From assembly GCA_035772405.1 (NCBI GenBank), contig JAYKKM010000122.1:1155501-1219500 (forward strand): a stretch of 64,000 nucleotides of DNA, in the 5' to 3' direction. Source of the stretch: Chrysogorgia sp. JL179-B06. Its lineage: Eukaryota; Cnidaria; Anthozoa; Scleralcyonacea; Chrysogorgiidae. The stretch's first letter is position 1; the number at the start of each line of letters is the position of its first letter. Below the pieces are notes generated by a model. It was not told where the DNA came from. It saw nothing but the letters and a program-made list of their open reading frames with translations, and made no database searches. The position numbers and the translations under genes were made by a program. Below are positions 33,628 through 58,191 of this stretch, piece by piece.

Positions 33628-33633
33628 CATGGA
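33628..33633. repeat. Target-site duplication of element B (left)
   Basis: CATGGA immediately precedes the left end. The same six bases follow the right end at 39367-39372. Six-bp duplications are the Polinton/Maverick length. Confidence 0.9.
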
Positions 33634-34995
33634 AGTAGATAACCCCCCCCATACAGCATTCAAAGGGATGCCGCCTCATTAAATATTCAATTTTTAATTA
33701 TTCATTCTCAGGCTCCTTTAGGACCCTCTAACCCTAGTCTCATTACGTCATGACTTCTCGTCTTCCTGGGGGAGCCTTAACCCTAATTATTTATTCAGAT
33801 ACGTCATTAAACCTTCAGGATCCCTAACCCTAGCCTCGTGTACCTGTAGGATCCCAAACCCTAATTAGTATTCAATTTAATATTATTATTCATACCAGTC
33901 TTCACTAACCCTAGTCCTCTTCCTGCGCTCTCATTCCCGACTCCTTCCGAACTTGATTTCCGAAGGCATTACGTCATCAAAAGGTAGCTCTTATTGCTTT
34001 TAATAATATAAGAAATGCCTTTGTAATTATACACTTCGTCTCCCTACGGCAATGTGAATGTGGGAAAGTGGGCAGCCCGAGAGCAGCGCATGCGCCATGG
34101 ATATGATATGAACTAAAGAGAGTAACGAAGAAGCATCTTATACTTTCACGTCTTAAAAATGTACGATCAACAGAGATTTATACGATTTGCCTCGCTGATA
34201 CATCGGTTAGATATTCGATAGATCTATGTAAATAAGAACCGCTTTAGGAAGGTTATGGAGGATAGTATATTTTAAAAATAGCGGAGTCGAACGAATCATA
34301 ACGGCTTATACGATTGTATCGGACTTTACGTCTTTACAAAGTTCATAAGGCCTCTAGTGTGTAAAGTAAGCGATTCCTTGGATAAAGAAATACTTCGGCA
34401 AGGTAATCGAAAAAAAGAAGTCAAAGGTATCGATTTTCCTAAGCGAGATAAAACCTTGCTTGGTATATATTATATTAGCTATTAAATTATTCAAGAGATA
34501 GCTTGTCAAACGAAGCGAAGGTTGAGTGACCACACAGACAATAGCGCATGGGTCATTAACAGTCATTAGTGCTCAACTCGGAAATATTTGCATGACTTGG
34601 GAATAATTAATTTGTTTTGAGGGTAAATACTGGGATTTTGAGGGTAAAAAATAGTCAATATGGGATGATGAGGGATAAATTGAGCGGGCAAGTTCAAACG
34701 CGACAATGGTGTTGCCATAGTAAAACTACGTTGCGTCGGAAAAAGTGATTAGCGAAGGGGTTTCCATAGCGAAACCGCGTTGCGTCCGTGTGAGGGACGG
34801 AAGTAATTACCTCTAAGCCTCTTTCACCTTTACGATCCCTAACCCTAGTCTCGTGTACCTTTGGGACCCCCATCCCTGACTTAATTACAAAAAGTAATCT
34901 CACAGACAGAAGAGGGCACACATATTTCGATAAACACATCAAATAAATATAGTATACAATATTGAGTTTATGAAATTTTTATTTCAAGTTATAAA
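33634..34995. repeat. Element B left terminal inverted repeat
   Basis: About 1,362 bp, matching the right copy at nearly every base checked (one 1-bp indel and a substitution seen near 34.88 kb). It contains several AACCCTAG[TC]CTCGTGTACCT and CTAACCCTAG motifs near both its outer and inner parts. The inner end carries the poly(A) signal for the ATPase gene, which reads into it. Confidence 0.9.
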
Positions 34996-34997
34996 TA

Positions 34998-36452
34998 CTA
35001 ATAAGGCCTACTTCTAAGGGAATATCTAGGCGTTTTAATTTTAAAAGTTTTTCGATATTCTTCCTGGTCTTCAGGCGTTAATGCTGCCACATTTTGTTCT
35101 GTCATCGGTAAATATTTTGATCTAGTCATCGATAGATGGTGTTCATATTCACCTCTTTCTTCAGGGGTCATCCTTGCTAAATCGCTCTTTTTCCAATCGG
35201 AAGAACTTTCCCAATTATTAAAGAAGTTTCGTTTAAGCTTTGGTTGTTCTGTCGAAACTGTAGTTGGTGGTGTCAAAAAATAGGCTTTAGGTGTAGTAGG
35301 AACCTGGTGAGGATCGGACGGGAGGTATTCTGTAGAATCATATTGCGTTGGAGTCTTTGGGATATTGCTTTCAGTTTGAAGATTATTTTGAACTGGAACC
35401 TGGTCGTGGAGTTGATTTTGGAAGGACAGAAAACGTTTAAGCTCATTAGAGTAGAGTATATTCTTCACATCTGGTGTTAACTGAGGCGTCTGTATAATAT
35501 TATGCATCTGTTCACCCGAGTTGTACATAGCGTTGAGGATGGGCGATTGTTGATACGATAGCTTTCGAATATAACGGTTTAGGTTTTGTTGGTCAGCGGT
35601 ATTTTCGTAGGGCATCACGTTCGATTTCAGTTGATATTGGTCACCGGTGATAGGTGGTTGTTCATATGACCGCTTTCGAATATAATGGTACATGTCTAGT
35701 TGACCAGTGGTATTTTCATCTGGTAGCACATTCGTTTTTAATCGATGTTGATCATCGGTAGTCGGTTTTAGATCAAGCATGAGATATCCGTGTGGACGCT
35801 TTGTCGCTTCCTCGTAACTTTTCATAAACTCTTGAACATGACCAGGGTTAACTTGTCGTGCTAAGACTGAGATTTGTTGCTTGTCCCGTGGAGATTTGAA
35901 CAGTACGATATAGTGGGCGTTGAGGCTGATATTTCTGGTTTCTTTGCCTTGATGAAATATATTTTGAACAATATAGATCACAGACAGATTCCGATGATGA
36001 CTTCCTTTTGTGAATAAATCGGCAATACGTTTATCGTCCCCTGACTGAGCCATAAGATCGTCGAGAACGATGAGGCTGCGTTCAGAGACATCTAAGAAGT
36101 TCTTTTCGGCAATGTCGTCATGTATTCCTTCATTGAGTTCAATGCCTGGTATAGTTGTGATCATATCCAAGTACATAGGTTGCCACTGGCCATAACACCA
36201 AATGATACGTTCAGGAGGGGGACTGATGGTTGCTTGAGCGTTTTCCAAAAGCTTTTTCACCCAAACGGTCTTGCCACTTTGAGTACATCCAGCCACAATA
36301 CACGTAAAAGGATGTTTCATAACGGAAGATCCACCGACGACTGAAGGCTGAGCATTAAAATGGTCACCTCCTCCATGGACGTACTTGATATGACGCTGAA
36401 GATTACCTCTGGTTGAAAAGTTCTTTCCGCATATATCACAGGCAAATGACAT
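34998..36452 (-). CDS. Zinc-finger P-loop ATPase of element B
   Basis: From ATG 36452 (MSFACDICGK) it codes 484 residues; an earlier in-frame TTG is less likely. Residues 5-26 form a C2H2 finger (CDICGKNF...LQRHIKYVH). A P-loop domain follows: Walker A GCTQSGKT at 55-62 and Walker B LIVLDD at 127-132, with a VIYIVQNIF strand beyond. This order fits the FtsK/HerA-type packaging ATPases of Polintons and adintoviruses, but the N-terminal finger and the long tail are extra. The tail has two diverged copies of a block around LK[TS]NV[LM]P.ENT (about 225-300) and is then rich in Gln, Pro and Thr. It reads outward into the left TIR. Inferred role: DNA translocation or packaging of the element, or a host-facing DNA-binding ATPase. 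It is more than twice the length of the ATPase in element A. Confidence 0.75.
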   Translation of the reverse strand: MSFACDICGKNFSTRGNLQRHIKYVHGGGDHFNAQPSVVGGSSVMKHPFTCIVAGCTQSGKTVWVKKLLENAQATISPPPERIIWCYGQWQPMYLDMITTIPGIELNEGIHDDIAEKNFLDVSERSLIVLDDLMAQSGDDKRIADLFTKGSHHRNLSVIYIVQNIFHQGKETRNISLNAHYIVLFKSPRDKQQISVLARQVNPGHVQEFMKSYEEATKRPHGYLMLDLKPTTDDQHRLKTNVLPDENTTGQLDMYHYIRKRSYEQPPITGDQYQLKSNVMPYENTADQQNLNRYIRKLSYQQSPILNAMYNSGEQMHNIIQTPQLTPDVKNILYSNELKRFLSFQNQLHDQVPVQNNLQTESNIPKTPTQYDSTEYLPSDPHQVPTTPKAYFLTPPTTVSTEQPKLKRNFFNNWESSSDWKKSDLARMTPEERGEYEHHLSMTRSKYLPMTEQNVAALTPEDQEEYRKTFKIKTPRYSLRSRPY

Positions 36453-36508
36453 GTTCACTCGGTGAAGACTAGAAGCCAAATGATGTTTCTCAGGAATGTT
36501 CTATGAAT

Positions 36509-36830
36509 TTATCCTTATCCTTATCCTTATCTTTATCTTTATGGCCTTATCCTTATCCTTATGGCCTTATCCTATATAGCTTATCTTTATGGCCTTATCT
36601 TTATCTTTATGGCCTTATCTTTATCTTTATGGCCTTATCTTTATCTTTATGGCCTTATCTTTATCTTTATGGCCTTATCCTTATCCTTATGGCCTTATCC
36701 TATATAGCTTATCCTTATCCTTATCCTTATCCTTATCCTTATCCTTATCCTTATCCTTATCCTTATCCTTATCCTTATCCTTATCCTTATCTTTATCTTT
36801 ATCTTTATCTTTATCCTTATGTCCTTATGT
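36509..36830. repeat. (TTATCC)n / (TTTATC)n tract in the divergent promoter region
   Basis: Hexamer repeats TTATCC, TTATCT and ATGGCC-containing variants fill most of the space between the ATPase gene and the rightward genes. Both transcription units must start in or next to it. Frames read Leu/Ser/Tyr/Pro repeats and are not genes. Confidence 0.85.
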
Positions 36831-36921
36831 TATCTTGCCATGAGTAAATGAGTAAAGAGTAATATAAAAGGTGTACTTCAGGGGGTGACCTCGTCATTTA
36901 TACGTTGGCTATCGTACAGAG

Positions 36922-37239
36922 ATGTTTAACAAGAAGCAGAGAGCTTTTCTTCGACATTACTGTTTGTCGAATTCTGGAGAACAACAGGCGCTTCTTGAGA
37001 GAGCTACCCCCGAACAAGTTAAGTGTATACATGACTGTATCCATAATGTTTGCAAAATGAAATACGAATTACCTCGGGAAACGATCGAAAAAGTGAGACC
37101 GTACGAAAACGACATAAGTACTTTAGTTGACCCCGGAAGAAGTTTCATGAGAAAGAAACAAATACTGGTCCAGCGAGGAGGAGGATTTCTCGATCTGTTA
37201 CTTGGTCCAGTTTTAGAAGGACTTGCAGAATTAGTATAA
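36922..37239 (+). CDS. Small basic protein of element B with GGG motif
   Basis: 105 residues, starting MFNKKQRAFLRHYCLSNSGE. A helical, basic N-terminal domain (about 1-60) is followed by RKKQILVQRGGGFLDLLLGP and a hydrophobic end. Small proteins with this KKxxLVQxGG-FL tail recur in invertebrate mobile elements in my memory; I cannot name the function. The basic body and glycine run before a hydrophobic tail resemble adenovirus-type core proteins, whose precursors are cut after Gly-Gly by adenain, but that is an analogy only. It precedes the acidic zinc-ribbon gene by 37 bp, suggesting one transcription unit. Confidence 0.6.
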   Translation: MFNKKQRAFLRHYCLSNSGEQQALLERATPEQVKCIHDCIHNVCKMKYELPRETIEKVRPYENDISTLVDPGRSFMRKKQILVQRGGGFLDLLLGPVLEGLAELV

Positions 37240-37276
37240 AAGAAATCAGTTCATTGTACTAGAGTCAGTCGAAGTC

Positions 37277-37999
37277 ATGGACACCAGCGAAGAAACATCT
37301 CCCTTTTACAATGATCAACGCATTCGACATGTACTATCCCATTTTAACAACAATGTTGAAAAGGCTTCAAATCTTCTCCACAGTTTGCTTATATCACATG
37401 ACATTTTGATATGGAATGCTCAACGGGAAATCGTTTACAATGGTAGAGTTATACCGAACACAAATATTGTCAATCTGATCGAATATTGTGTATCCGAATA
37501 CGATACCGACATTCCCAAACCGCCTGGCCTAAACGTTTTCGTGAGAGGGCTTGCAGAAGTCAAAGTCAATAAGAATCTCATTGAAAATCCTGAAGTACTT
37601 GCATTACTGGCACGCGAAGGAACAGAAGATACAGATTCGGAATATGAAAGCAGCGAAGAGAGAAGCGCCGCGGAGAACTCCGAAGATGACGAGGAAGAAG
37701 ACGAAGATGACGAGGAAGAAGAAGAAGAAGAGGAAGAAACAATCTCGCAATATGACATTGATAAAGATGAGAGTCGATACATTTGTAATTACTGTGAAAG
37801 CAAGATGACTGGTGTACATTTAGCTATATGCCCCAAATGTTTATGGCAAGACTTTTACAACAATATTCATCAATGTAAATTATGTGGCTTAGCATCACCT
37901 TTGACTATATCACACAATATTGTTTTTTGTACTGCATGTCCGTATACTATTGTAACAGATGGCACTGGAGATAATATTATGATTGAGCTTAAATCATAA
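37277..37999 (+). CDS. Acidic zinc-ribbon protein of element B
   Basis: 240 residues. The N-terminal domain (about 1-110) has a conserved-looking ILIWNAQREIVYNGRVIPNT core. Residues 114-157 are almost all Glu, Asp and Ser. The C-terminal third has four Cys pairs, C170-C173, C185-C188, C200-C203 and C218-C221, fitting two zinc ribbons. The composition suggests a nucleic-acid or transcription-related adaptor, which is inference. It reads outward into the right TIR, and AATAAA follows 18 bases after the stop at the TIR's inner edge. Confidence 0.65.
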   Translation: MDTSEETSPFYNDQRIRHVLSHFNNNVEKASNLLHSLLISHDILIWNAQREIVYNGRVIPNTNIVNLIEYCVSEYDTDIPKPPGLNVFVRGLAEVKVNKNLIENPEVLALLAREGTEDTDSEYESSEERSAAENSEDDEEEDEDDEEEEEEEEETISQYDIDKDESRYICNYCESKMTGVHLAICPKCLWQDFYNNIHQCKLCGLASPLTISHNIVFCTACPYTIVTDGTGDNIMIELKS

Positions 38000-38004
38000 C
38001 CACT

Positions 38005-39366
38005 ATTTGTAACTTGAAATAAAAATTTCATAAACTCAATATTGTATACTATATTTATTTGATGTGTTTATCGAAATATGTGTGCCCTCTTCTGTCTGTG
38101 AGATTACTTTTGTAATTAAGACAGGGATGGGGGTCCCAAAGGTACACGAGACTAGGGTTAGGGATCGTAAAGGTGAAAGAGGCTTAGAGGTAATTACTTC
38201 CGTCCCTCACACGGACGCAACGCGGTTTCGCTATGGAAACCCCTTCGCTAATCACTTTTTCCGACGCAACGTAGTTTTACTATGGCAACACCATTGTCGC
38301 GTTTGAACTTGCCCGCTCAATTTATCCCTCATCATCCCATATTGACTATTTTTTACCCTCAAAATCCCAGTATTTACCCTCAAAACAAATTAATTATTCC
38401 CAAGTCATGCAAATATTTCCGAGTTGAGCACTAATGACTGTTAATGACCCATGCGCTATTGTCTGTGTGGTCACTCAACCTTCGCTTCGTTTGACAAGCT
38501 ATCTCTTGAATAATTTAATAGCTAATATAATATATACCAAGCAAGGTTTTATCTCGCTTAGGAAAATCGATACCTTTGACTTCTTTTTTTCGATTACCTT
38601 GCCGAAGTATTTCTTTATCCAAGGAATCGCTTACTTTACACACTAGAGGCCTTATGAACTTTGTAAAGACGTAAAGTCCGATACAATCGTATAAGCCGTT
38701 ATGATTCGTTCGACTCCGCTATTTTTAAAATATACTATCCTCCATAACCTTCCTAAAGCGGTTCTTATTTACATAGATCTATCGAATATCTAACCGATGT
38801 ATCAGCGAGGCAAATCGTATAAATCTCTGTTGATCGTACATTTTTAAGACGTGAAAGTATAAGATGCTTCTTCGTTACTCTCTTTAGTTCATATCATATC
38901 CATGGCGCATGCGCTGCTCTCGGGCTGCCCACTTTCCCACATTCACATTGCCGTAGGGAGACGAAGTGTATAATTACAAAGGCATTTCTTATATTATTAA
39001 AAGCAATAAGAGCTACCTTTTGATGACGTAATGCCTTCGGAAATCAAGTTCGGAAGGAGTCGGGAATGAGAGCGCAGGAAGAGGACTAGGGTTAGTGAAG
39101 ACTGGTATGAATAATAATATTAAATTGAATACTAATTAGGGTTTGGGATCCTACAGGTACACGAGGCTAGGGTTAGGGATCCTGAAGGTTTAATGACGTA
39201 TCTGAATAAATAATTAGGGTTAAGGCTCCCCCAGGAAGACGAGAAGTCATGACGTAATGAGACTAGGGTTAGAGGGTCCTAAAGGAGCCTGAGAATGAAT
39301 AATTAAAAATTGAATATTTAATGAGGCGGCATCCCTTTGAATGCTGTATGGGGGGGGTTATCTACT
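38005..39366. repeat. Element B right terminal inverted repeat
   Basis: Inverted copy of the left repeat with the same AACCCTAG motifs. The inner edge carries AATAAA (38018-38023) just after the zinc-ribbon gene. The mirror copy in the left repeat serves the ATPase gene, so one duplicated signal ends both units. The identical 82- and 70-codon frames in both repeats have no recognisable content. Confidence 0.9.
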
Positions 39367-39372
39367 CATGGA
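39367..39372. repeat. Target-site duplication of element B (right)
   Basis: CATGGA follows the CTACT end, an exact copy of the left flank. Confidence 0.9.
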
Positions 39373-39589: not shown

Positions 39590-39595
39590 AATGTT
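39590..39595. repeat. Target-site duplication of element A (left)
   Basis: AATGTT directly before AGTAGTATAG. Repeated exactly at 58186-58191 after the right end. Confidence 0.92.
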
Positions 39596-39764
39596 AGTAG
39601 TATAGCAAGTAGGGCTGCGAGCTCAATCGACCTCAACCGTGAGTATAAACACCAAAACGTCACCAAATTTGGCCAAGTCGCGACTCGACAAATTTGGCGA
39701 TGTTTTGGTGTTTATACTCACGGTTGACGTCGAATAAGCTCACAGCCCTACTTGCTATACTACT
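39596..39764. repeat. Terminal 169-bp palindrome (left)
   Basis: AGTAGTATAGCAAGTAGGGC at the outer end is repeated inverted as CTTGCTATACTACT at the inner end, with about 80-bp arms on either side of a centre near GGCCAAGTCGCGACTCGAC. The element's very tip can therefore fold into a hairpin. The same structure lies at the right end. Confidence 0.88.
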
Positions 39765-40117
39765 ACAGCGATCGTTAGTCGATCTAAACACCCCTCCCAC
39801 GTTTTCTACTAAATTGATGCCAAACACACGCGAGACTCACGAGACAACACCAAATCACTATTTTAACGAAATACGACACGTTTCGTCAAAATTTAGAGAA
39901 AGTTTTGTGTCGTCATTTTCGCATTTGTGTTTGACAAACTACAACAGACGCGCTCTACCATTGTTTCAATTCATGCGCGAAAAAAAAGCCACTAGATTAT
40001 GATTCTAGTGATGATGTTTAATAAATTTCAGCGAGAGAGCCACTAGAGTCTAGTGTTAAATAGATTTCATATGCGAGAGTGCTCTACCTGCTATACGAAT
40101 CAAGGTCACCTGTTGAT

Positions 40118-40298
40118 GTTGCTAACAACAACATTCCATTGCGAATAGCAACCACAACTTTTCAAAAAATGTTTTCACTTTTAAAAAATATTTTCACTTT
40201 TAAAAAATATTTTCACTTTGAAAAAATATTTTCATTTTAAAATATTTTTTTCAAAAAGTTGTGGTTGCTATTCGCAATGGAATGTTGTTGTTAGCGAC
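40118..40298. repeat. Second palindrome inside the left TIR
   Basis: Arms of about 50 bp (GTTGCTAACAACAACATTCC and complement) flank an AT-rich centre of repeated TTTTAAAAAATATTTTCAC units. Mirrored in the right TIR at 57483-57663. Confidence 0.85.
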
Positions 40299-40426
40299 AC
40301 ACCACGTACAACCACCTGCTGTCGTGCGAGGTGGAGATAGCTGACCACGAGAGAAGAATCGCGATGTTTGAAGAAGGGGTGAGGACCACCATGCTAAGAC
40401 TGTCTAACTTTGAGCGTACACTATGA
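40295..40426 (+). pseudogene. Coding-like remnant in the left TIR
   Basis: Without an ATG at its start, the frame reads from the palindrome edge through NHLLSCEVEIADHERRIAMF then EEGVRTTMLRLSNFERTL and stops. The heptad-like charge pattern looks like a coiled coil. A short ATG frame begins at the AMF Met. The mirror copy is at 57355-57486 on the minus strand. It may be the 3' end of a gene trapped when the TIR formed, or a chance frame. Confidence 0.35.
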
Positions 40427-40511
40427 TTGTACACTATAAATATCGTGAATAAAAAACTGTTGTGTGAATGGGCTCGCGCGGTTGTTATGAAACCACCTGC
40501 TAGCATGCAAA

Positions 40512-40763
40512 TTAGTCCACCCGCTCACTATTTTCAGTGTTTGTCGAACTTCTGAAATGGTGGTCGTACACATATTTAGACGTTGTGATTCCTCCCGACA
40601 ACAAGCCCAAGAAAGGCACGTACGGTGTCACAATCGCGACAATGCTCTCGACGTCTTTACAACTCGTCGTTTAGTTCGTCAGGATTTTCAATAGCGTTCA
40701 ACCCGTTTAGTAAGCTAGCGAATTTGCTGATTAACAAGTCGGTGAGAAAAGCGTTTACAATCT
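40512..40763 (-). pseudogene. Truncated copy of the right-end lipoprotein gene
   Basis: Reversed copy of the 3' half of the gene at 56751-57269, at the inner edge of the left TIR. It lacks the start. A deletion of about 24 bp between DELNDEL and KDVESIV shifts the frame and introduces stops. It is dead, but shows that the TIR grew inward over a gene from the other end. Confidence 0.85.
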
Positions 40764-40808
40764 CGCACGCGTGGAGAGAGTGACCTTATAGGAATCACGT
40801 CGCAGTGT

Positions 40809-43800
40809 TTAAGGTATGTCTCTCACTACAATGTTTTTGTGACCATATGCGTAGGAGTCAATACCATTTTCTAAAAGGTATCGTTTATCATCAAAACAGG
40901 ATAACGACACCTTATTAATTTCATAACTACCTAGCTGATGCTTGACGCTTCTAATGGTCTTCATTGTGTGTCGCAATTGTTTCTGCTCAAGTAACACACT
41001 TTTATAATCTTCGTGTTTGATCACTTTTTTAATTATATTTTTTCTAATGCCTTTAGCGGTTTTCCCACCACCCCCATCCTCTTTCAAATAGCTGTACATT
41101 TTACTGCGCAACCCAACGAACTCAATAATTGGTGTTCCAGCGCACTCGTCCTTCATCTTGCCAATAACTTTCTTATTCTCTTTGAAAGCGAACGGGTTGT
41201 CTGCAGGGTAATCGCTATTGTCAAACTTTTCGCGCTCCTCCATGAAGTCGGAATAAACGTCGCCAGTTTTGATTGAGTACAACAGACTGTCAGTGTCAGT
41301 GAAGTGCAATCTACAGGTGTCGCTAGAGTACTTTTTCATAATATAATTATAGTGAAAATTATACATCAGCGTTTTACTCAAGTCTAGTATGCACATACCC
41401 ACGTATGCGGGTCTATTTAATGTCAGCGTCTCTTTGACTTTGTGGACAGCGACTAAATTCTCGCTAAATATCTTGCAAGACACAAACGTAGGCTTTGAGA
41501 CAAGCTTTTCTAACTTTTTCTCGGTGGTCACTAATCTTACATCCACACGCTTCCTCAAATTCTCCATTGTTTTTCCAAACACACTGTTGTTCATCAACTT
41601 GAAGAAATCCTTCTCGAAAGCGTTCTTAGCCGCAGTTCTCTTGACTGTGTTAAAGTCGATGTACTTGCCCAACCACTTGGACTGGTCGAACTGTAGGACC
41701 CTATGCACCTTTTTGATTTTTAGTCCAAGACCCGTGTACAACTGCAGATTTCTATAGTGACACACATACTTTTTTTTGTCCATCAAATTAGTCACCAACT
41801 TTTTCACACCGCCAACACTCACGTTAAACTTATTTTTGATTTTCGTGCAGTACTCCGACAACATGTCAACAGTTATCTCCATCTTCTCGGGAGCCAACGG
41901 GTAGTCGTTATGTAGGTCATGCAAATGGGCTGGATACTCCAAGTCAACTTCAAGCAGCAGGCCCTTTTTACTACCGTCGTGATAGTCGTGTAGATTAACC
42001 TTTTTTATTTCTTTCTCAGTCAACCACTTGAAGCCGCCCGTGGGTAGACTTCGACTCATTGCCCATCCATACAAGTTGTTGGCGTCAAGGTACATCAAAT
42101 ACTTCGACTCTTGCTCTTTGTCATACCCCTTCATATATTTATTGTTCGCCACGCCATGTCTGTTGCATATGTAGCTCACACCACCACGCATACCTAATTC
42201 TACGAACTGGAACATGTCGATGTCGGACAATAATTCGAGTTCTACTCCAGTCATCTTTAACATGGCATCCCAAGCCAATCCGGGCGATGTGAAATAGTGA
42301 CACGGGTCTAATTTATACTCGCGATGGCATGTCTTTCTAAAGTTCTCAAAAACGTCGGCAAGCAAGAGCACATCGCTTTTCAAATACAGGTCGTGATACC
42401 CACCCATACTTTCAACGTCGAAGTAGTCCCACACATCGATGGCGCGCTCGTGCATTTCTTCCGTGATGTGCTCATCGTTCAGAACGCTGTAGAAATCTTT
42501 TTTGGAGGGTAGCTCGCTTTCGTCGAATTTATTAAAGGAGTCCATATAATCGTAGGGATAGACTCCCTTTCTTGTCATGAGTGCCAACCCCTCATCGCGA
42601 AACACTTCTGACGTGTACTTGAAAGCGTCCCTTGGTAGGTTCTTCACCAAGTTGTCTAGACCGCTACTCATGAACTGAAAGCTGTCCAAAAATACCAAGT
42701 TTTTTCCAAGCATGAACGCCATGTACTTCTCCATGTTGTTCGGTATCACATTTATGTCTTGACCAAACTTACCAATCTCCTGCATGATGAAATGACTATC
42801 GTAGCCACGTAAGTTATGAAAGATCACAGGAATTTTATCAGTCAATCTAAAGTTCACGTTACACTGACGATGTGCGGACCCTCTGTACTTACCTGAGACA
42901 TGACAGTGGTCTCTCACTCTAACGTCAGCACCAGTGTACTCAACACTGCAAATATGACAACTTTTAGCCTCGTCAAAGTTCTTCTTATCGGCGTCAGTCA
43001 GTATCATTTCTTTGTTAAAGTGGCTCTCAGATGTCTCTTTACAATATTCGACAATTTCTAACATCTCCCCAATGAACTTGTTGACTGCATTTTCACCGCG
43101 ATACACCTTCACTGGCTTACTATACGCATTGTCATAGCAACAAACCAATTTATACCCATAACCACAGTCAACGTGTCTCTGGTAGGCGTTTGTGTAGCTA
43201 CACTCGCTTGATGGCGTCGCTGTGTGCACCTTCTGTGTGATAGCCTCGAAGTCTGCGTACACCACAAATGGTACATTTAATTGTCTGCTAAAATTCTCGT
43301 ATTTCACTTTCGCACCTTTTTGCGGCATTTTAATAGCCTGCTTCCCATTGATGACCAAACACACTTCCACATGACTTTCAAGCACGTCCGCACGGGTGAA
43401 ACACTGCAAACAATACCTACAAAAGTGCTTTCTCGCCTTATACTTTGTCTGACGGTACATGAATTTGTCGAAATCGCGAATGTACACATAATGCTTGTTG
43501 CCCACGTCATTAGTTATCAACAATAGGTCCATATGGTCAGGATACGCCTCCTTAGAAACGTACACAGGGAATGGCTGCTTATTCTCATACCCAAAAACAT
43601 TAATGCTAATTTCGTTAGCCTTTTCGATCTTGTTGTAGTCTTTGAGTGTGACTGGGAAGTCAATTCCGTCATAGTTCAGCTCACCGACATGCCTAGCGTA
43701 CTTTGACGTTCTGTCAGAGTTTTTTCCAACAGGAAATTTGTGTGCAAGGTGACACCATCTAAAGCACTCGTTGTCATCATCGTTATTCACGTTTATCAGA

Positions 43801-44399
43801 CCCTTCATACTGTTGCGCAGCTCCTTTGGCAACACAATGTAGCTACTCCCATGCAAAGGTCTGTAAATAGCGACATTAACGTAGTGTGCGTCTATTTTGT
43901 CGATAGTCCATCCAGACCCCTCAGATAACCACCCAGCTATCCGCGTCAAAATCTGTTCCGACCCACGATTGGCGACACCCTCGATGTCATGCTCGTTAAT
44001 GACGACAAACGTTTCGCTGTTAAAGTAGGCAGTTTTGTATGTGGTCTTATCAAGTTCTAAAACTTTCTCAAAAGTGACCTTGACTGTCTCCACCACTTTC
44101 ATTCCGTTGGTCTCACCTAGTTCACGTCTCAAAAGGTTAGTGACAGCACTTCTACTACCATTTACCTGATTGATGTCTCTGTCGTCAATCACTTCGACTC
44201 CATAGGACCTTGTGAACCCTCTCAGTGCTCGATCCAACAGATGTGTTGACGGTGTGAGGTCTTCGACTAGACGTTGTGTTTCTTGGTCTCTAAAGAAGCC
44301 GTGAACGTTGGTCGCTTCATCTGTTAGTGAATTGACAACGGCTGCGCTCGTCTTATGCGCCCGTCTTTTTTTCAGCGGGTTTTTCACAGTCCGACTCAT
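40809..44399 (-). CDS. polB: Family B DNA polymerase, Polinton type
   Basis: 1,196 residues. Exonuclease motifs: DFE at 383-385, NLRGYDSH at 529-536 and YLKSDVLLLAD around 672-682. Polymerase motifs: A DANNLYGWAMS from 772, B KLMNNSVFGKTM around 934-945, and C DTDS at 1035-1038. These are the signatures of protein-primed type B polymerases. A Cys cluster CRYC (327-330) and a CHIC...RVRDHCHVSGKYRGSAH block (481-510), resembling an endonuclease VII-type fold, sit around the exonuclease, as in other Polintons. The first 300 residues have no known motif and may hold a priming function. All catalytic residues are present, so the enzyme looks functional. It replicates the element's linear genome. 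It is the leftmost gene and reads toward the left TIR, 45 bp away. Confidence 0.97.
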   Translation of the reverse strand: MSRTVKNPLKKRRAHKTSAAVVNSLTDEATNVHGFFRDQETQRLVEDLTPSTHLLDRALRGFTRSYGVEVIDDRDINQVNGSRSAVTNLLRRELGETNGMKVVETVKVTFEKVLELDKTTYKTAYFNSETFVVINEHDIEGVANRGSEQILTRIAGWLSEGSGWTIDKIDAHYVNVAIYRPLHGSSYIVLPKELRNSMKGLINVNNDDDNECFRWCHLAHKFPVGKNSDRTSKYARHVGELNYDGIDFPVTLKDYNKIEKANEISINVFGYENKQPFPVYVSKEAYPDHMDLLLITNDVGNKHYVYIRDFDKFMYRQTKYKARKHFCRYCLQCFTRADVLESHVEVCLVINGKQAIKMPQKGAKVKYENFSRQLNVPFVVYADFEAITQKVHTATPSSECSYTNAYQRHVDCGYGYKLVCCYDNAYSKPVKVYRGENAVNKFIGEMLEIVEYCKETSESHFNKEMILTDADKKNFDEAKSCHICSVEYTGADVRVRDHCHVSGKYRGSAHRQCNVNFRLTDKIPVIFHNLRGYDSHFIMQEIGKFGQDINVIPNNMEKYMAFMLGKNLVFLDSFQFMSSGLDNLVKNLPRDAFKYTSEVFRDEGLALMTRKGVYPYDYMDSFNKFDESELPSKKDFYSVLNDEHITEEMHERAIDVWDYFDVESMGGYHDLYLKSDVLLLADVFENFRKTCHREYKLDPCHYFTSPGLAWDAMLKMTGVELELLSDIDMFQFVELGMRGGVSYICNRHGVANNKYMKGYDKEQESKYLMYLDANNLYGWAMSRSLPTGGFKWLTEKEIKKVNLHDYHDGSKKGLLLEVDLEYPAHLHDLHNDYPLAPEKMEITVDMLSEYCTKIKNKFNVSVGGVKKLVTNLMDKKKYVCHYRNLQLYTGLGLKIKKVHRVLQFDQSKWLGKYIDFNTVKRTAAKNAFEKDFFKLMNNSVFGKTMENLRKRVDVRLVTTEKKLEKLVSKPTFVSCKIFSENLVAVHKVKETLTLNRPAYVGMCILDLSKTLMYNFHYNYIMKKYSSDTCRLHFTDTDSLLYSIKTGDVYSDFMEEREKFDNSDYPADNPFAFKENKKVIGKMKDECAGTPIIEFVGLRSKMYSYLKEDGGGGKTAKGIRKNIIKKVIKHEDYKSVLLEQKQLRHTMKTIRSVKHQLGSYEINKVSLSCFDDKRYLLENGIDSYAYGHKNIVVRDIP

Positions 44400-44424
44400 T
44401 GGCTTCTATATACACTACGCTTAT

Positions 44425-44979
44425 TTATTTTTTCCTAAGCCACTCATTGTAATAACGATCACCACTTTCACACCATCCCAGCTTTGGGTACACCACCCCA
44501 AACAGGTTGTCGTCAAACAAGTCTTTCACCTTCCCGTCTTTGAGGTCTGACACCTTCTTGAGTGTCTCTAATTGTCTTCTATGACACAACCTAATAATGT
44601 AGTATCCGTATCTGCTGACATTTCTACCCTTTATCAAATTGCATGAGTGCAGCACATTGACAACTTTCAGGAAGTCCTCTTTTATCAACTCAAGGTGCTC
44701 ACCCTTCACAACGTTCCGCAGTCTCCTCCCCATCCACCAAGACCGTTTGTGAACGCTTTTTAATCGCGTGAGTCTCATGTCGCTGTAACTCTGAGTGTAA
44801 CCCCATTCGGTGTCACCACACTTTGGACACGCGTACCCACCGCAGTCGGTCATGTTTTTCACAACGTCACAATCCGAGCAGTAGTAAATTCTGAAGGTGT
44901 CTCCACACTCAGTTTGCGTCTCGCTCGCGATCTCGTCAATTGTCAAGCCATAACTCATCTGCCTCATAAGTTTGTCCAT
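44425..44979 (-). CDS. Zinc-ribbon protein (late transcription factor-like?)
   Basis: 184 residues from ATG 44979 (MDKLMRQMSYG); an upstream in-frame GTG would add 11. A zinc ribbon is formed by C34-x2-C37 and C51-x2-C54 (YYCSDCDVV ... YACPKCGDT). Downstream lies a helical SYSDMRLTRLKSVHKRSWW segment. A zinc ribbon followed by such a helical region recalls VLTF3-like late transcription factors of large DNA viruses, but the match is only by eye. It ends 25 bp before the polymerase start, in the same minus-strand block. Inferred role: transcription or DNA binding. Confidence 0.6.
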   Translation of the reverse strand: MDKLMRQMSYGLTIDEIASETQTECGDTFRIYYCSDCDVVKNMTDCGGYACPKCGDTEWGYTQSYSDMRLTRLKSVHKRSWWMGRRLRNVVKGEHLELIKEDFLKVVNVLHSCNLIKGRNVSRYGYYIIRLCHRRQLETLKKVSDLKDGKVKDLFDDNLFGVVYPKLGWCESGDRYYNEWLRKK

Positions 44980-45008
44980 CACTCTTATACTACTCCAACA
45001 TATTTTTT

Positions 45009-45428
45009 TCACCGAATTAGCACCCGTACCGCTATTCCACTACCCAAGCCTAACGCGCTAACAAACAATAATTGGTATTCCTTCATTTCCGCACTTGGTT
45101 GGTAGTAATCCGCAACCCTCGGGAGGTCAGTGAACACTCGTCCGCTGTACTGTATGGTCATTACGCTTCTAAGTTCTTCCAACGCGTGGTTTGTGTCATT
45201 GATGTCAGCATTAGCATCAGAGAGCCGTTGTCGTAAACGCTGGATCTTATCTTTCTTAGCGACTTCATTCTCATACCACACTTCTTTCGCACTGGCTAGC
45301 TGTTCCAACGCATGGTTATGTCTTTTCATCTCAGCTTCATAGCCTGAGTGATTAAACTTCGAAAACATAAAGCCAGCGCCTGCAAAAGCCACTGCATTAA
45401 ATATCCCTCCAGCCACAACACTCACCAT
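45009..45428 (-). CDS. Membrane protein with central coiled coil
   Basis: 139 residues. A hydrophobic glycine-rich N-terminal segment (about 5-22, AGGIFNAVAFAGAGFMF) and a C-terminal segment (about 119-137, LLFVSALGLGSGIAV) flank a long charged helix with MKRHNHALEQLASAKEVW and IQRLRQRLSDANADI. This suggests a two-anchor coiled-coil protein, perhaps a virion membrane or scaffold component. Family known to me only as Polinton-associated and unnamed. It lies in a compact run of four small minus-strand genes. Confidence 0.65.
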   Translation of the reverse strand: MVSVVAGGIFNAVAFAGAGFMFSKFNHSGYEAEMKRHNHALEQLASAKEVWYENEVAKKDKIQRLRQRLSDANADINDTNHALEELRSVMTIQYSGRVFTDLPRVADYYQPSAEMKEYQLLFVSALGLGSGIAVRVLIR

Positions 45429-45432
45429 TAAC

Positions 45433-45669
45433 TTACGTTGATTTGAATGGGTCTGTCGGTATCCACTTTTTCGATTGTAACCATTTTACTAACAGCGTTC
45501 CTGCACCAACAGCTGCAGCGAGTTTCACTGTGCCTTTCACTGTCTCTGGTGTTCCCAATGGTTCTCCCAAAGCCTTTTTAGAAATCATACTCACCACCAC
45601 AGCACCAGTCGTAACAAGTAGCGCATCGTACAATTCGTTCATAAGTTCTTTTCGATCGATCGCAGCCAT
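45433..45669 (-). CDS. Small membrane protein
   Basis: 78 residues from ATG 45669 (MAAIDRKELMNELYDALLVT); an upstream TTG is not a likely start. A hydrophobic stretch TTGAVVVSMISKKALG and a second one LAAAVGAGTLLVKWLQS suggest two short membrane segments, followed by a basic tail ending DPFKST. Spaced 4 bp from the next gene. Function unknown, probably structural. Confidence 0.6.
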   Translation of the reverse strand: MAAIDRKELMNELYDALLVTTGAVVVSMISKKALGEPLGTPETVKGTVKLAAAVGAGTLLVKWLQSKKWIPTDPFKST

Positions 45670-45692
45670 ATATACATTGTCATGTGTTTTGT

Positions 45693-46037
45693 TCAAGAAT
45701 CAAATGTGTCAAGTGTTGGACGACGAGTTCTACAACTTTCTGACACAGCTGGTGTAGTACTCACAGGCTCTAGTCGTGTCTCTTTTTCACTGCTAATTGT
45801 GTACCATAACGAAGCACCAGCGATGATCACACCAAGTGTTCCGACAACATATCCATAACCCCACTCACTACCCTGTTCCTCGTTGACTATCATTTCACGC
45901 ATTTTTTTTTCTTTCGCAGCTTTCGATATCTCAGCCAACTTTTTACCAGCGGCGACGCGCTTTGGGTCCTTCACCTTAACACTTTTCACATCAGCTGTGA
46001 TCTTAGCTTCAACAGCCGTCTGTGAGTCCTCAACCAT
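45693..46037 (-). CDS. Small single-pass membrane protein
   Basis: 114 residues. A lysine-rich N-terminal half with KDPKRVAAGKKLAEISKAAK is followed by one membrane segment (about 74-92, GYVVGTLGVIIAGASLWYT) and a polar tail. The KDPKRVAAGK block recurs in Polinton-type elements in my memory but has no assigned role. First gene of the leftward block, back-to-back with the thymidine kinase gene across a 180-bp shared promoter region. Confidence 0.6.
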   Translation of the reverse strand: MVEDSQTAVEAKITADVKSVKVKDPKRVAAGKKLAEISKAAKEKKMREMIVNEEQGSEWGYGYVVGTLGVIIAGASLWYTISSEKETRLEPVSTTPAVSESCRTRRPTLDTFDS

Positions 46038-46218
46038 CTAATACACTATCACGTGTTATCTTACTCACAGTTGACCTCACAGGTGTCTCACAGTTGACCT
46101 CACAGGTATCTCACAGTTCCAGACCAAACGCATTAAAAATTAGAGCTCCAGCGGATATTCAACATGGAACGACGGTTTCCACCACAATAAAAAATATTTC
46201 TCTGAGGGTATAGTAACC
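46038..46218. promoter_or_regulatory. Divergent promoter region with tandem repeats
   Basis: Separates the leftward small-gene/polymerase block from the rightward thymidine kinase. It contains three imperfect direct repeats of TCACAGTTGACCTCACAGGT (about 46066-46116), candidate binding sites for a shared regulator, followed by AT-rich sequence including AATAAAAAATAT. Confidence 0.45.
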
Positions 46219-46788
46219 ATGACAGAGAAAGTTGGTAAACTAGAAATTGTGATTGGTCCCATGTTCGCAGGAAAAACGACAGAGACTCTCCGTAGGTTAG
46301 TCACGTTAAGTAAGTCAGGGCTCAAAGTCCTTTACATGAACAACACAGGTGACACTAGGCGAACTGACCACGCGTTCTCCACGCATCGTCAGACCATTGT
46401 TGTCGGATCAGACAGTTTACCTGCGAAGCTAATCACCAACCTTCCAAGTTCTTCCGAGATAGTCGATTATGACGTCATCGGAATTGACGAAGGCCATTGG
46501 TACTCTGGGTTACTCCCAATTATTCGCGAATACATTAAAGCTGACATTCACGTCATTATTTGTGGTCTCATAACAACGGAGCACTTAAAAAGACTTGGTG
46601 AACTCGACACGCTCTTCCCAATGGCAGACGACATCACATTTCTAAAAGCGTATTGCGTCGTTTGTCGCGACACTTACGGAGCAACTGTTGAAGCACCATT
46701 CAATTGGAGATACAACCCAGGACCATCATTCGTTGGTGGCGCTGAGCAATATCGCGCAGTGTGCAGACGTCATCATCCTTCCACATAA
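46219..46788 (+). CDS. tk: Thymidine kinase (type II, TK1-like)
   Basis: 189 residues, the normal size of this family. P-loop GPMFAGKT at 13-20, Walker B/catalytic region VIGIDEGHWY at 86-95 with E91 as the expected catalytic base, a zinc site formed by C146-x2-C149 and C182 with H185 or H186, and a substrate lasso around FVGGAEQYRAVCRRHH. The enzyme phosphorylates thymidine to dTMP, feeding dTTP to the element's own polymerase. Family members usually have Gln-Phe where this one has His-Trp in DEGHWY. It is the only plus-strand gene in the left half. Its neighbours are unrelated, consistent with capture of a cellular or viral gene. All key residues are present. Confidence 0.95.
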   Translation: MTEKVGKLEIVIGPMFAGKTTETLRRLVTLSKSGLKVLYMNNTGDTRRTDHAFSTHRQTIVVGSDSLPAKLITNLPSSSEIVDYDVIGIDEGHWYSGLLPIIREYIKADIHVIICGLITTEHLKRLGELDTLFPMADDITFLKAYCVVCRDTYGATVEAPFNWRYNPGPSFVGGAEQYRAVCRRHHPST

Positions 46789-47031
46789 AATTAAGGGTGT
46801 TCTCGGATACCCCACTTTTTGAAATTTAGACATTGGTCACACGAGACGTCCAATGTCTCGTAGAAACATTTTTTCACACAGTGGTCAGAAGGTTTGTGAA
46901 ATAAAGAGAGAAAGTTTCGCAGACACCTTTATCAAGTTAAAAAACGTCTTTAAAAAATGCTAGAGCAGTTGTCGCTTCAAACGTCGTCTCAACAATGAGA
47001 ACGAGTGCTAACTCGACTCATTACTCACTGT
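46789..47031. other. Convergent intergenic gap
   Basis: About 240 bp between the 3' ends of the thymidine kinase and BRO/nuclease genes. AATAAAGAG at about 46900 on the plus strand is a plausible poly(A) signal for TK. No gene seen. Confidence 0.5.
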
Positions 47032-47793
47032 CTAAAAAGTCTCTTTACAATAGCGTCTCTCATGGTTGCTCAACGCTGATTTATTTTTAAATTTACGAAA
47101 ACACTGAGAGCACTGAAACCCAACGTCAAAGAAATATTTTATTACCGCGGTAATAGCGTCGTCGTACGAGTCGCACAACAACGTTAGATAACCAGCGGAT
47201 TTGTATCTGAGTAGCAGAGACTCCTGCTCTTTGGACGTCTTGCCTGTACCACCTGGATTCTTGAACTCAATCACAAGCCCGCTGTGCTGTCGGTTCGCAT
47301 TAGCAATAACCAAGTCAGGTGTCCCACGTTGGTAACCTTTTTTCCACGAATTTATTCTTTTACTCGAAGTGTCTTGATTCTCACCACAAGCGGCTATCAA
47401 AATAGCCTCTGGATAATATCTCCTAAGAAAACCAACAACTTTCGTGTGAAGGTCGAACTCAGTGATCATTACGAATTGATTGTGTTTGAGACCAACGTCA
47501 GCTAAACCCTTTCTAATGCTTGGTAAGACTTCTGAGTGCACCCACCTTCCAAAGTGTTTCGCACGCTCCATTTTACTCGAGAACGTTAGTGAGTAGACCC
47601 CAAGTTCGTTGATAAACGAGGCCTGCTCTATCTTCATTTTACAATCAGGTTCGACGTGGTCGTTGACTGCATCTTTTGGTCTAGCGTAACCTAGAGCGCT
47701 TGCGACTTCTTTCGCTTTGAACCATATTTCACCGTTGTGATTAACCGTCGTGATTTGGTGACCATCGAATAATTGCACTGAGTTGGTTGCCAT
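47032..47793 (-). CDS. BRO-N / VRR-NUC nuclease / zinc-finger fusion
   Basis: 253 residues from ATG 47793 (MATNSVQLFD); an upstream ATG at 47826 would add 11. Residues 7-97 match the BRO-N fold: GEIWFKAKEVASALGYARPK, then INELGVYSLTFSSKMERAK and FGRWVHSEVLPSIRKG. Residues about 118-222 are a VRR-NUC type PD-(D/E)xK nuclease: GYQRGTPDLVI with D160, then LVIEFKNPGG with E176 and K178, and KTSKEQESLLLRYK. A C-terminal finger (C228, C231, H244, C249) has a CSQCFRKFKNKSALSNHE pattern. BRO-N domains bind DNA in DNA viruses, and VRR-NUC cuts branched DNA, so a role in resolving replication intermediates is plausible but inferred. Confidence 0.85.
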   Translation of the reverse strand: MATNSVQLFDGHQITTVNHNGEIWFKAKEVASALGYARPKDAVNDHVEPDCKMKIEQASFINELGVYSLTFSSKMERAKHFGRWVHSEVLPSIRKGLADVGLKHNQFVMITEFDLHTKVVGFLRRYYPEAILIAACGENQDTSSKRINSWKKGYQRGTPDLVIANANRQHSGLVIEFKNPGGTGKTSKEQESLLLRYKSAGYLTLLCDSYDDAITAVIKYFFDVGFQCSQCFRKFKNKSALSNHERRYCKETF

Positions 47794-47964
47794 TACTATA
47801 GCCCTGCAAAAAAAACTACTCGACATAGGTGTCAGGTTTTTTATAGATCTGGTTTGTTGTGTACCAATGCAGCAAATACGTTTTATTAGTCTTCAGTTTT
47901 CTACGTCGTCTGAAAAAGTTTCTAATGTTACGAGCCAGTTTTCTAAGCCAACCCATTACATGAC

Positions 47965-48171
47965 TTAAGTCACGTCTCCTACCACTCCCACAGTGTCTAG
48001 TTCTGGTAACATAATAGGTTTGCCGTAAGTCTTTTTAGACCTCATACCAATCTCAGCGTGGAGCTCGAGAGTTATGTCACCGCGGCCAAATGACCCACCA
48101 GCTTTGAACATGTGGTCAGTCGTTTTATTTATTTTATATATTTCACGTTCTTTTGAAACACACGCTCCCAT
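47965..48171 (-). CDS. Small predicted myristoylated protein
   Basis: 68 residues starting MGACVSKEREIYKINKTT: Gly2, Ser6 and a following Lys make a textbook N-myristoylation signal, and Cys4 may be palmitoylated. The rest is polar with FGRGDITLELH. The start follows the fiber-like gene's stop with no gap, so they are probably co-expressed. Lipidated small proteins occur in adintoviruses. Role unknown, perhaps virion membrane attachment. Confidence 0.55.
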   Translation of the reverse strand: MGACVSKEREIYKINKTTDHMFKAGGSFGRGDITLELHAEIGMRSKKTYGKPIMLPELDTVGVVGDVT

Positions 48172-49122: not shown

Positions 49123-49124
49123 TA

Positions 49125-50612: not shown

Positions 50613-50624
50613 ATAATATACTGT
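50613..50624 (+). promoter_or_regulatory. TATA-like divergent promoter core
   Basis: ATAATATACTGT lies in the 12 bp between the start codons of the leftward 495-residue gene and the rightward penton-like gene. With so little room, each promoter must overlap the other gene's coding start. Confidence 0.35.
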
Positions 50625-51335: not shown

Positions 51336-51340
51336 ATTAT

Positions 51341-52444: not shown

Positions 52445-52450
52445 TGTAAT

Positions 52451-53401: not shown

Positions 53402-53460
53402 AGAGAAAATGTGATTCGTGGGAGTTAGAGAGCGATATTCAAAATGTGAGCTAATGTAAT
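53402..53460 (+). pseudogene. Relic of the integrase 3' end
   Basis: GATTCGTGGGAGTTAGAGAG then CGATATTCAAAATGTGAGCTAATGTAAT copies the last codons and spacer of the integrase gene (52400-52450), immediately before copy 2. It marks the boundary of the tandem duplication. Confidence 0.85.
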
Positions 53461-54870: not shown

Positions 54871-54893
54871 TGATAAAACATGTGTAAAGGTAT

Positions 54894-56132: not shown

Positions 56133-56147
56133 ATCAAACGTGAGTTA

Positions 56148-56747: not shown

Positions 56748-56750
56748 AAT

Positions 56751-57269: not shown

Positions 57270-57354
57270 TTTGCATGCTAGCAGGTGGTTTCATAACAAC
57301 CGCGCGAGCCCATTCACACAACAGTTTTTTATTCACGATATTTATAGTGTACAA

Positions 57355-57486
57355 TCATAGTGTACGCTCAAAGTTAGACAGTCTTAGCATGGTGGTCCTC
57401 ACCCCTTCTTCAAACATCGCGATTCTTCTCTCGTGGTCAGCTATCTCCACCTCGCACGACAGCAGGTGGTTGTACGTGGTGTGTCG
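57355..57486 (-). pseudogene. Coding-like remnant in the right TIR
   Basis: Mirror copy of the plus-strand remnant at 40295-40426, reading SCEVEIADHERRIAMF and FERTL on the minus strand. Its sequence appears the same in both TIRs, as expected for inverted repeats kept alike by replication. Confidence 0.35.
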
Positions 57487-58185: not shown

Positions 58186-58191
58186 AATGTT
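58186..58191. repeat. Target-site duplication of element A (right)
   Basis: AATGTT follows the right end and copies the six bases before the left end. Confidence 0.92.

What the first reader, a model, noticed from the sequence alone, without database searches (positions are those of the whole stretch)
33634..39366. Polinton-like satellite element with only three genes
Seen: AGTAG...CTACT ends, a 6-bp duplication CATGGA, 1.36-kb near-identical TIRs, and exactly three genes (zinc-finger ATPase, small basic protein, acidic zinc-ribbon protein) with no integrase, polymerase or capsid frame. The terminal letters and duplication length equal those of the complete Polinton 229 bp away. Inference: a non-autonomous or parasitic element that borrows a Polinton's integrase, and perhaps polymerase and capsids, as virophages and satellites do.
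Basis: partly seen in the sequence, partly recalled or inferred. Interest (0 to 1): 0.88.

Follow-up and report, generated by a model that had tools for sequence, protein, structure and literature searches.

The report
Capsid-less satellite of animal Polinton-like virus
A short mobile element, present in dozens of near-identical copies in an animal genome, carries only three virus-type genes (one a predicted DNA-packaging motor) between ends shared with a larger resident virus family, which suggests that it moves, and perhaps gets packaged, at that virus's expense.

Summary
In detail: 33634-39366, AGTAG...CTACT ends, CATGGA duplication, 1.36-kb TIRs (99.8%), three genes, no integrase, polymerase or capsid. 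The neighbouring Polinton is not the likely helper: its TIR shows no significant match. The same genome holds another Polinton-like virus family (H) with intact polymerase, capsid-candidate and integrase frames (not all in one fetched element), whose terminal ~1 kb is mostly 98-99% identical to the element's TIR. Its ATPase, X and Zn proteins are only 28-45% identical to the element's and differently arranged, so the element is a separate old lineage, not a recent deletion. It has at least 40 near-identical copies; 0 of 93 ATPase matches lie within 20 kb of 116 capsid matches (capped lists). A related family keeps only the ATPase, whose core shows purifying selection (dN/dS 0.09-0.17). Best reading: a satellite mobilised in trans by the TIR-sharing virus, keeping its own packaging ATPase, probably to load its genome into the helper's particles (inferred, not shown). 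Nine full-text searches of an open-access library listed no such system.

The parts
33628..33633 (.). left target-site duplication CATGGA
   Evidence: sequence
33634..34997 (+). left terminal inverted repeat; bp 28-1034 are mostly 98-99% identical to TIRs of larger INT-, PolB- or capsid-bearing elements in the same genome
34978..34983 (-). AATAAA just downstream of the ATPase stop, at the inner TIR edge
   Evidence: sequence
34998..36452 (-). 484-aa predicted packaging ATPase: N-terminal C2H2 finger, A32/FtsK-like P-loop domain (aa ~45-246), C-terminal extension whose aa 315-384 match the N-terminal part of the helper's Zn protein
36509..36820 (.). tandem array (ATAAGG)n, about 49 units, between the divergent genes; GATAAG-rich stretch at this place in all 16 three-gene loci examined
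36863..36869 (+). TATAAAA box upstream of the 105-aa gene
   Evidence: sequence
36922..37239 (+). 105-aa protein gX ending in RGGGFLDLLLGPVLEGLAELV; homologue of helper hX (31% over 85 aa)
37277..37999 (+). 240-aa acidic protein gZn (pI 4.3) with four CxxC pairs; aa 29-111 match helper hZn (28%)
38004..39366 (-). right terminal inverted repeat
38018..38023 (+). AATAAA just downstream of gZn, at the inner TIR edge
   Evidence: sequence
39367..39372 (.). right target-site duplication CATGGA
   Evidence: sequence
39595..58186 (.). neighbouring complete Polinton (not part of the element; its TIR shows no significant match), duplication AATGTT

Best explanation
The element (S1) is a satellite of an endogenous Polinton-like virus family (H). 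SHOWN: S1 and H share AGTAG ends, 6-bp duplications and about 1 kb of nearly identical TIR; S1 has no integrase, polymerase, protease or capsid; H copies with intact PolB, capsid-candidate or integrase frames exist in the same genome (not all three in one fetched element); S1 is high-copy and its ATPase belongs to a lineage distinct from H's and under purifying selection. INFERRED: H polymerase replicates S1 from the shared TIR, H integrase inserts it, and S1 keeps its own packaging ATPase (with X and Zn proteins, parts of the same viral gene block) because this favours S1 DNA during loading into H capsids, the role that TerS proteins of PICIs play in bacteria (recalled). The family-specific tandem array beside the ATPase gene is a candidate recognition site for the ATPase's C2H2 finger (speculative).
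For: TIR: S1 vs H 98-99% over about 1 kb in 12 of 14 H arms; the exceptions are L031 (96%) and the left arm of the C121 element (89-93%, about 220 bp). Mean divergence of the TIR core is 0.48% within S1, 1.02% within H, 0.88% between; 2 of 13 H arms in that set (L017, L026) have an S1 arm as nearest neighbour. TIR exchange: three-gene copy L033 has an H-type left end and its left TIR is 99.5% identical to that of H copy L026; S1 copy L020 shares TIR with H copy L018 about 145 bp further in than the window copy does. Missing genes exist elsewhere: intact PolB frame (1126-1137 aa) in 4 of 5 PolB-bearing loci; integrase 357 aa (rve, Chromo) in L019 and L036; capsid candidate 116 matches, 57 full-length without stops by my count. 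Separation: 0 of 93 ATPase matches within 20 kb of 116 capsid or 40 PolB matches; control, 19 of 40 PolB within 12 kb of a capsid match. Unit: 35 of 40 gX+gZn cassettes have an ATPase match within 4.5 kb. Selection: dN/dS of the ATPase core 0.17 and 0.09 between S1 and related family S2. The ATPase is what stays: S2 element L040 (TSD AAAGTG) has the ATPase and none of the other genes searched for, and helper-derived element L016/17 has ATPase-X-Zn but no INT, PolB or capsid. ATPase relatives hit Pox_A32 (26 of 28) and Adeno_IVa2 (6 of 28).
Against: Nothing shows particles, transcripts or mobilisation. The outermost ~27 bp differ between S1 (AGTAGATAACC) and H (AGTAGT[G/A]ATACC), except in L033, so identical end recognition is not proved. 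11 of 13 H arms are not nearest to an S1 arm. Many S1 copies are decayed: 5 of 16 loci keep the full 484-aa ATPase frame; 28 of 93 genome matches are full-length without stops by my count. Within S1 copies constraint is weak (pN/pS 0.46 ATPase, 0.65 gX, 0.72 gZn, few changes). The S1-S2 dN/dS could reflect selection in a full-virus ancestor, since the tree does not resolve S1 and S2 as sisters. L016/17 also keeps a GRF zinc ORF, so the ATPase block is not all that stays. The capsid assignment of H rests on gene order and a weak match to the neighbouring Polinton's putative capsid (E 2.6e-4); no PDB match. In the C121 element, the only PolB-bearing one seen whole, PolB, integrase and capsid frames are broken; no fetched element has all three intact.
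Confidence: 0.6

Rival explanations
1. Plain non-autonomous transposon: mobilised by the helper's integrase (and polymerase), with the three genes as relics or passengers that do nothing for it.
For: 11 of 16 loci lack the full ATPase frame; weak constraint within the burst; a TIR-sharing element without any of the three genes exists (L015).
Against: 28 of 93 ATPase matches intact by my count; dN/dS 0.09-0.17 in the ATPase core between two families in which no capsid was found; 35 of 40 cassettes have an ATPase match nearby; database relatives of the three proteins (496, 24 and 1).
Confidence: 0.2
2. Internal deletion derivative of the TIR-sharing virus.
For: Same TIR; the three genes are a contiguous block of the virus; helper-derived three-gene elements of that sort do exist (L016/17).
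Against: Proteins 45/31/28% identical to the helper's in the aligned parts; ATPase inverted, fused to a piece that matches the Zn protein (E 0.002), Zn protein acidic instead of basic and with added CxxC pairs; in the tree a 95/100 branch parts H from S1/S2.
Confidence: 0.05
3. Mutualistic or multipartite segment: S1 supplies packaging functions that some helper variants need.
For: Close TIR sharing and high copy numbers of both; some TIR-sharing 11.3-kb variants themselves lack PolB, so complementation between partial elements is plausible.
Against: The fetched capsid-bearing helpers carry their own ATPase, X and Zn genes, though not all frames are intact.
Confidence: 0.07
4. Interference element kept by the host: S1 defends the animal by sabotaging packaging of the resident virus.
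For: Virophage-like precedent in protists (abstract start of PMC8547959); a dominant-negative packaging ATPase would do this.
Against: No host-side signal was looked for or seen; dozens of scattered mobile copies fit selfish spread as well.
Confidence: 0.08

Closest known systems
Polintons / Mavericks (Polintoviricetes) and adintoviruses
   Same: AGTAG-type ends (recalled for the family), long TIRs, 6-bp duplications (passage of PMC8097293), A32-like packaging ATPase gene; the presumed helper has PolB, rve integrase with chromodomain and an adenain/S273R-like protease
   Different: S1 lacks integrase, PolB, protease and capsid, the genes that define a Polinton (passage of PMC11071308)
Non-autonomous DNA transposons (general)
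   Same: Shares TIRs and duplication length with larger elements that encode the enzymes
   Different: Keeps three viral genes of a distinct lineage, intact in many copies, instead of being a short deletion product
Virophages and Polinton-like viruses acting as satellites
   Same: Small DNA elements of the same virus world that depend on another virus
   Different: Virophages encode their own capsids and replication genes and exploit giant viruses of protists; S1 encodes neither and sits in an animal with a Polinton-like partner
Phage-inducible chromosomal islands (PICI, PICMI)
   Same: Logic: small integrated element that uses a helper's particles, with an own packaging gene (TerS; recalled, papers seen as listing and abstract starts)
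   Different: Bacterial, phage capsids, no homology known; capsid use by S1 is not shown
Adeno-associated virus with adenovirus
   Same: About 5-kb genome that integrates and depends on a helper DNA virus (passages of PMC6723459); inverted terminal repeats (recalled)
   Different: AAV encodes Rep and its own capsid (recalled); S1 encodes neither

Membership tests
Polinton / Maverick | protein-primed family B polymerase gene | tested here: not met
   no PolB match inside 33634-39366
Polinton / Maverick | retroviral-type (rve) integrase gene | tested here: not met
   no INT match inside the element
Polinton / Maverick | capsid and protease genes | tested here: not met
   no match to the helper's capsid candidate or protease or to the neighbouring Polinton's capsid candidate
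Polinton / Maverick | AGTAG-type ends, TIRs, 6-bp duplications | tested here: met
   12 of 12 S1 copies with both ends readable
Polinton / Maverick | A32/FtsK-type packaging ATPase | tested here: met
   Pox_A32 4.1e-6; relatives also Adeno_IVa2, 6 of 28
Non-autonomous element of a larger family | TIR shared with elements that encode the missing enzymes | tested here: met
   mostly 98-99% over about 1 kb with INT- or PolB-bearing elements
Non-autonomous element of a larger family | interior derived from that element by deletion | tested here: not met
   interior proteins 28-45% identical and rearranged
Virophage (Maveriviricetes) | own major and minor capsid genes | tested here: not met
   no match to the capsid candidates of the helper or the neighbouring Polinton; no virophage-specific capsid profile was used
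Satellite (PICI-like) using helper particles | lacks capsid genes but has its own packaging gene | tested here: met
   packaging role by homology only
Satellite (PICI-like) using helper particles | satellite DNA found inside helper particles | not testable with these tools
   no particle or virome reads available
Satellite (PICI-like) using helper particles | no member carries capsid genes | tested here: met
   in the capped lists, 0 of 93 ATPase matches within 20 kb of 116 capsid matches

The most novel reading that the evidence does not exclude
A eukaryotic counterpart of PICIs: a capsid-less satellite in an animal germline that pirates the particles of a resident Polinton-like virus by means of its own packaging ATPase, whose C2H2 finger reads a satellite-specific tandem array as its packaging signal, with at least two satellite families (three-gene and ATPase-only) reduced around that same motor gene.
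Probability: 0.35. Interest if true: 0.93.

Novelty: new variant of a known kind. Interest (0 to 1): 0.8.

Why it matters
Polintons carry capsid genes but, according to the abstract of Barreat and Katzourakis 2021 (start of abstract), their particles have not been observed. A satellite that keeps a packaging motor and little else would be indirect evidence that particles form and matter, since the gene pays only if there is something to pack into. It would also bring hyperparasitism, known from virophages and phage satellites, into animal genomes, and it gives a simple test: sequence nuclease-protected particles and look for S1 next to H DNA.

Tried and rejected
Rejected: the adjacent Polinton as TIR donor; recent deletion from the helper; host origin of the genes. 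Led nowhere: relatives in viral contigs (none by tblastn); protein search with gZn, 1 hit among 1859 candidates, probably because its acidic run took up the word search; PDB matches for the helper capsid candidate; PHROGs for the three proteins, nothing beyond weak matches; Bcl-2-like and PC4-like readings of two helper ORFs, seen by eye, not supported. A canonical C2H2 code (recalled) would give GAN for S1 and S2 fingers and GGG for the 11.3-kb helper type; the arrays are GAT-rich or GGG-rich accordingly, but the S1 array also holds GG steps, so I count it as a hint only.

Not obtained: genome counts for the integrase and for the helper ATPase, and the empty-site search, all unanswered; structure models (tool switched off).

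Limits: genome searches score only the best candidates (40 of 2107 for the TIR; 40 of 406 and 88 of 3103 for the ATPase; 40 of 243 and 114 of 1368 for the capsid candidate; 40 of 265 for PolB; 40 of 147 for gX+gZn), so counts are lower bounds, and the 93 and 116 are match rows, some loci giving two. Fetched copies come from the TIR search, except L039 and L040 (ATPase search), so they favour the window's TIR type. Labels follow gene content: L016/17 and L030 counted as H, L015 kept apart, L038 left out. The tree used 66 of the 120 listed database proteins (380 aa or more), and its Polinton outgroup has a very long branch. In one search frames covering under 90% of the query were left out. Positions were copied by hand from the listings. 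The 28 and 57 intact counts are mine, by eye.
Full report
WHAT IS THERE. The element at 33634-39366 is as described: AGTAGATAACCC ends, CATGGA duplicated on both sides, TIRs of 1364 and 1363 bp at 99.8%, and three main ORFs. The ATPase gene runs leftwards; the 105-aa gX and 240-aa gZn genes run rightwards from a shared intergenic stretch that holds about 49 copies of ATAAGG. An AATAAA lies just past the stop of the ATPase and of gZn, at the inner TIR edge, and a TATAAAA lies before gX. tblastn with 15 ORFs of the neighbouring Polinton and 13 helper ORFs found no integrase, polymerase, protease or capsid inside.

COPIES. The window lies in a 781-Mb unnamed assembly; names among the protein hits (Oculina patagonica, Paramuricea clavata) suggest a cnidarian. 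The ATPase gene has at least 40 full-length copies at 99-100% (40 of 406 candidates scored), gX+gZn at least 40 at 98-100% (40 of 147), and 35 of those 40 cassettes have an ATPase match within 4.5 kb. Of 93 protein-level ATPase matches (88 of 3103 candidates scored), 28 are full-length without stops by my count. I fetched 15 further loci with matches to all three genes, 16 with the window; 12 have both ends readable, and those 12 have matching 6-bp duplications, all different. In 5 of the 16 the 484-aa ATPase frame is whole. L014 is a 9.1-kb palindromic double copy.

THE TIR PARTNER IS NOT THE NEIGHBOUR. The Polinton at 39595-58186 (TIR 97.4%, duplication AATGTT) has a TIR with no significant match to this one. 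A TIR search of the genome instead brought in larger elements. Type HB (seen whole on C121 as L038+L027, about 14.1 kb, duplication CGCACG; parts in L026, L031, L032, L034): TIR, GRF zinc protein, integrase, 267-aa and 148-aa genes, capsid candidate, protease, then Zn, X, ATPase and PolB on the other strand, TIR. Type HA (11.3 kb; L018/19, L021/22, L036): integrase to ATPase likewise, but no PolB, no GRF ORF in the ORF lists, and a TIR long enough to include the first 143 codons of the integrase. Support: rve 2.6e-10 and Chromo 2.9e-12, DNA_pol_B_2 3e-22, zf-C2H2 and Pox_A32 in the ATPase, Peptidase_C5 0.009 (below its cut-off) in the protease; the protease matches S273R (African swine fever virus, recalled) at 1.4e-7. 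The capsid call rests on gene order and a weak match to the neighbour Polinton's putative capsid (E 2.6e-4). PolB is one open frame of 1126-1137 aa in 4 of 5 HB loci; the integrase is intact in L019 and L036 and broken in L038 and L022. The C121 element itself has broken PolB, integrase and capsid frames; I saw no single element with all three intact.

TIR SHARING. Over about 1 kb the element's TIR is 98-99% identical to 12 of 14 H arms; L031 has 96%, and the left arm of the C121 element 89-93% over about 220 bp. Over bp 122-1034 mean divergence is 0.48% within S1, 1.02% within H and 0.88% between; 2 of 13 H arms (L017, L026) have an S1 arm as nearest neighbour, the other 11 do not. Breakpoints are mosaic: L020 (S1) follows L018 (HA) to bp 1180, the window only to 1034; L033 (three genes) carries an H-type end and a left TIR 99.5% identical to that of L026. 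The outermost 27 bp differ between S1 and H in the other copies and vary among copies, while the two ends of a copy mostly agree; I read this as one end being copied from the other during replication (inference).

NOT A DELETION. Aligned parts of the S1 proteins are 45% (ATPase), 31% (X) and 28% (Zn) identical to the helper's. The ATPase gene is inverted relative to the others, its aa 315-384 match aa 34-103 of the helper Zn protein (E 0.002), and gZn is acidic (pI 4.3 against 9.4) with four CxxC pairs. In a tree of 73 ATPases (66 of the 120 listed database proteins) a branch with 95/100 support parts H and the Oculina-type proteins from S1, S2 and a clade of 36 database proteins; S1 and S2 are not resolved as sisters. 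ATPase-X-Zn is probably a native viral block: a 5.5-kb contig in a bacterial MAG (L041, probably contamination) matches PolB of the neighbouring Polinton (1e-124), ATPase (1e-39), Zn (0.002), protease (9e-23) and capsid candidate (4e-18) in the helper's order, with X and core genes recognised by eye.

NO CAPSIDS NEAR SATELLITE ATPASES. None of 93 ATPase matches lies within 20 kb of any of 116 capsid or 40 PolB matches, the nearest being 44.9 and 34.3 kb; as a control, 19 of 40 PolB matches have a capsid match within 12 kb. The lists are capped, so an exception is not excluded.

WHAT IS KEPT. A related family, S2, has an intact 528-aa ATPase and no match to gX, gZn or the other genes searched for: L040, 4.96 kb, duplication AAAGTG. 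Between S1 and S2 the ATPase core has dN/dS 0.17 (L040, dS 0.52) and 0.09 (L039, dS 0.45); the C-terminal part about 0.5. This selection may partly date from a full-virus ancestor. Within S1 copies pN/pS is 0.46 (ATPase, 6 frames), 0.65 (gX, 15) and 0.72 (gZn, 15), on few changes. The helper-derived element L016/17 (10 kb, duplication CAGGTG) keeps intact ATPase, X and Zn plus a GRF zinc ORF, and has no INT, PolB or capsid. L015 has none of these genes. So three kinds of reduced element kept the ATPase and one did not. A gene that the helper also supplies is best kept if it favours its own DNA; a packaging motor can do that. This is the step I infer.

ARRAYS. S1 (6 bp), S2 (17 bp) and HA-type genes (80 bp, G-rich; L036, L018, L021, L016, L030) have different tandem arrays directly before the ATPase gene. 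Of five HB loci, L026, L031 and L034 have none, and L027 and L032 only a few copies of a 10-bp unit. S1, S2 and HA ATPases carry an N-terminal C2H2 finger; the HB ATPase frames lack it, though a separate zinc-type ORF precedes the ATPase in L027 (by eye, sequence). The 17 S1 arrays in 16 loci contain 20-34 GATAAG each against 0.27 per kb in the rest of the window. A packaging signal, a replication origin or a host-factor (GATA) enhancer are all possible.

LITERATURE. Passages seen: PMC4028283, PMC6431247, PMC8097293, PMC11071308, PMC10120064, PMC6723459. The passage of PMC10120064 says that cnidarian capsid genes were the only metazoan ones outside the main Maverick-Polinton cluster, in keeping with H. 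PICI, PICMI and SaPI papers were seen as listing and abstract starts. Nine searches bore on novelty; none of the rows that they listed (titles and abstract starts) described a capsid-less satellite of a Polinton-like virus. Subscription papers and Repbase entries were not searched, and non-autonomous Polintons as such are known to me from memory.

VERDICT. Observation confirmed; satellite status well supported; the adjacent Polinton is the wrong partner; packaging piracy is the most likely use of the retained genes but remains inference.

Noticed in passing
window 36509-36820; L040:3974-4420; L036:6529-7140: Three unrelated tandem arrays (6, 17 and 80 bp) occupy the same place, directly upstream of the ATPase gene, in S1, S2 and PolB-less helper-type elements; PolB-bearing copies have none or only a few copies of a 10-bp unit.
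   Followed up: partly
window 39595-58186: Complete Polinton with thymidine kinase (46219-46788), Bro-N/VRR_NUC protein (47032-47826), PolB, INT with chromodomain and ATPase; duplication AATGTT; its TIR ends contain a 172-bp self-complementary stretch.
   Followed up: partly
L014; L039: Palindromic double copies of satellite elements, as might be expected from replication of linear DNA with inverted ends.
   Followed up: no
L018, L019, L021, L022, L036: 11.3-kb elements with integrase and capsid candidate but no PolB, whose TIR has grown to include the first 143 codons of the integrase; possibly a further class dependent on others.
   Followed up: partly
L015:316-5771: TIR-sharing element (duplication TACGTG) with none of the known genes, only a 160-aa ORF containing SQRQHDCLM; ORFs with the same stretch occur in L016 and L040 (by eye).
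   Followed up: no
L038:2241-2639; L036:7472-8131: Helper ORF near the TIR with a stretch NNFGRVIAYL that reminded me of a Bcl-2 BH1 motif; for L038 neither Pfam nor PDB sequence search supported it.
   Followed up: yes
L041 (VBWA01000072.1): Contig in a Rhodocyclaceae MAG that encodes PolB, ATPase, Zn, protease and capsid-candidate relatives of a Polinton-like virus; probably eukaryotic contamination of the bin.
   Followed up: partly
window 7782-7852 (-) and 7903-7974 (+): Two weak tRNA family matches, possibly tRNA-derived repeats.
   Followed up: no
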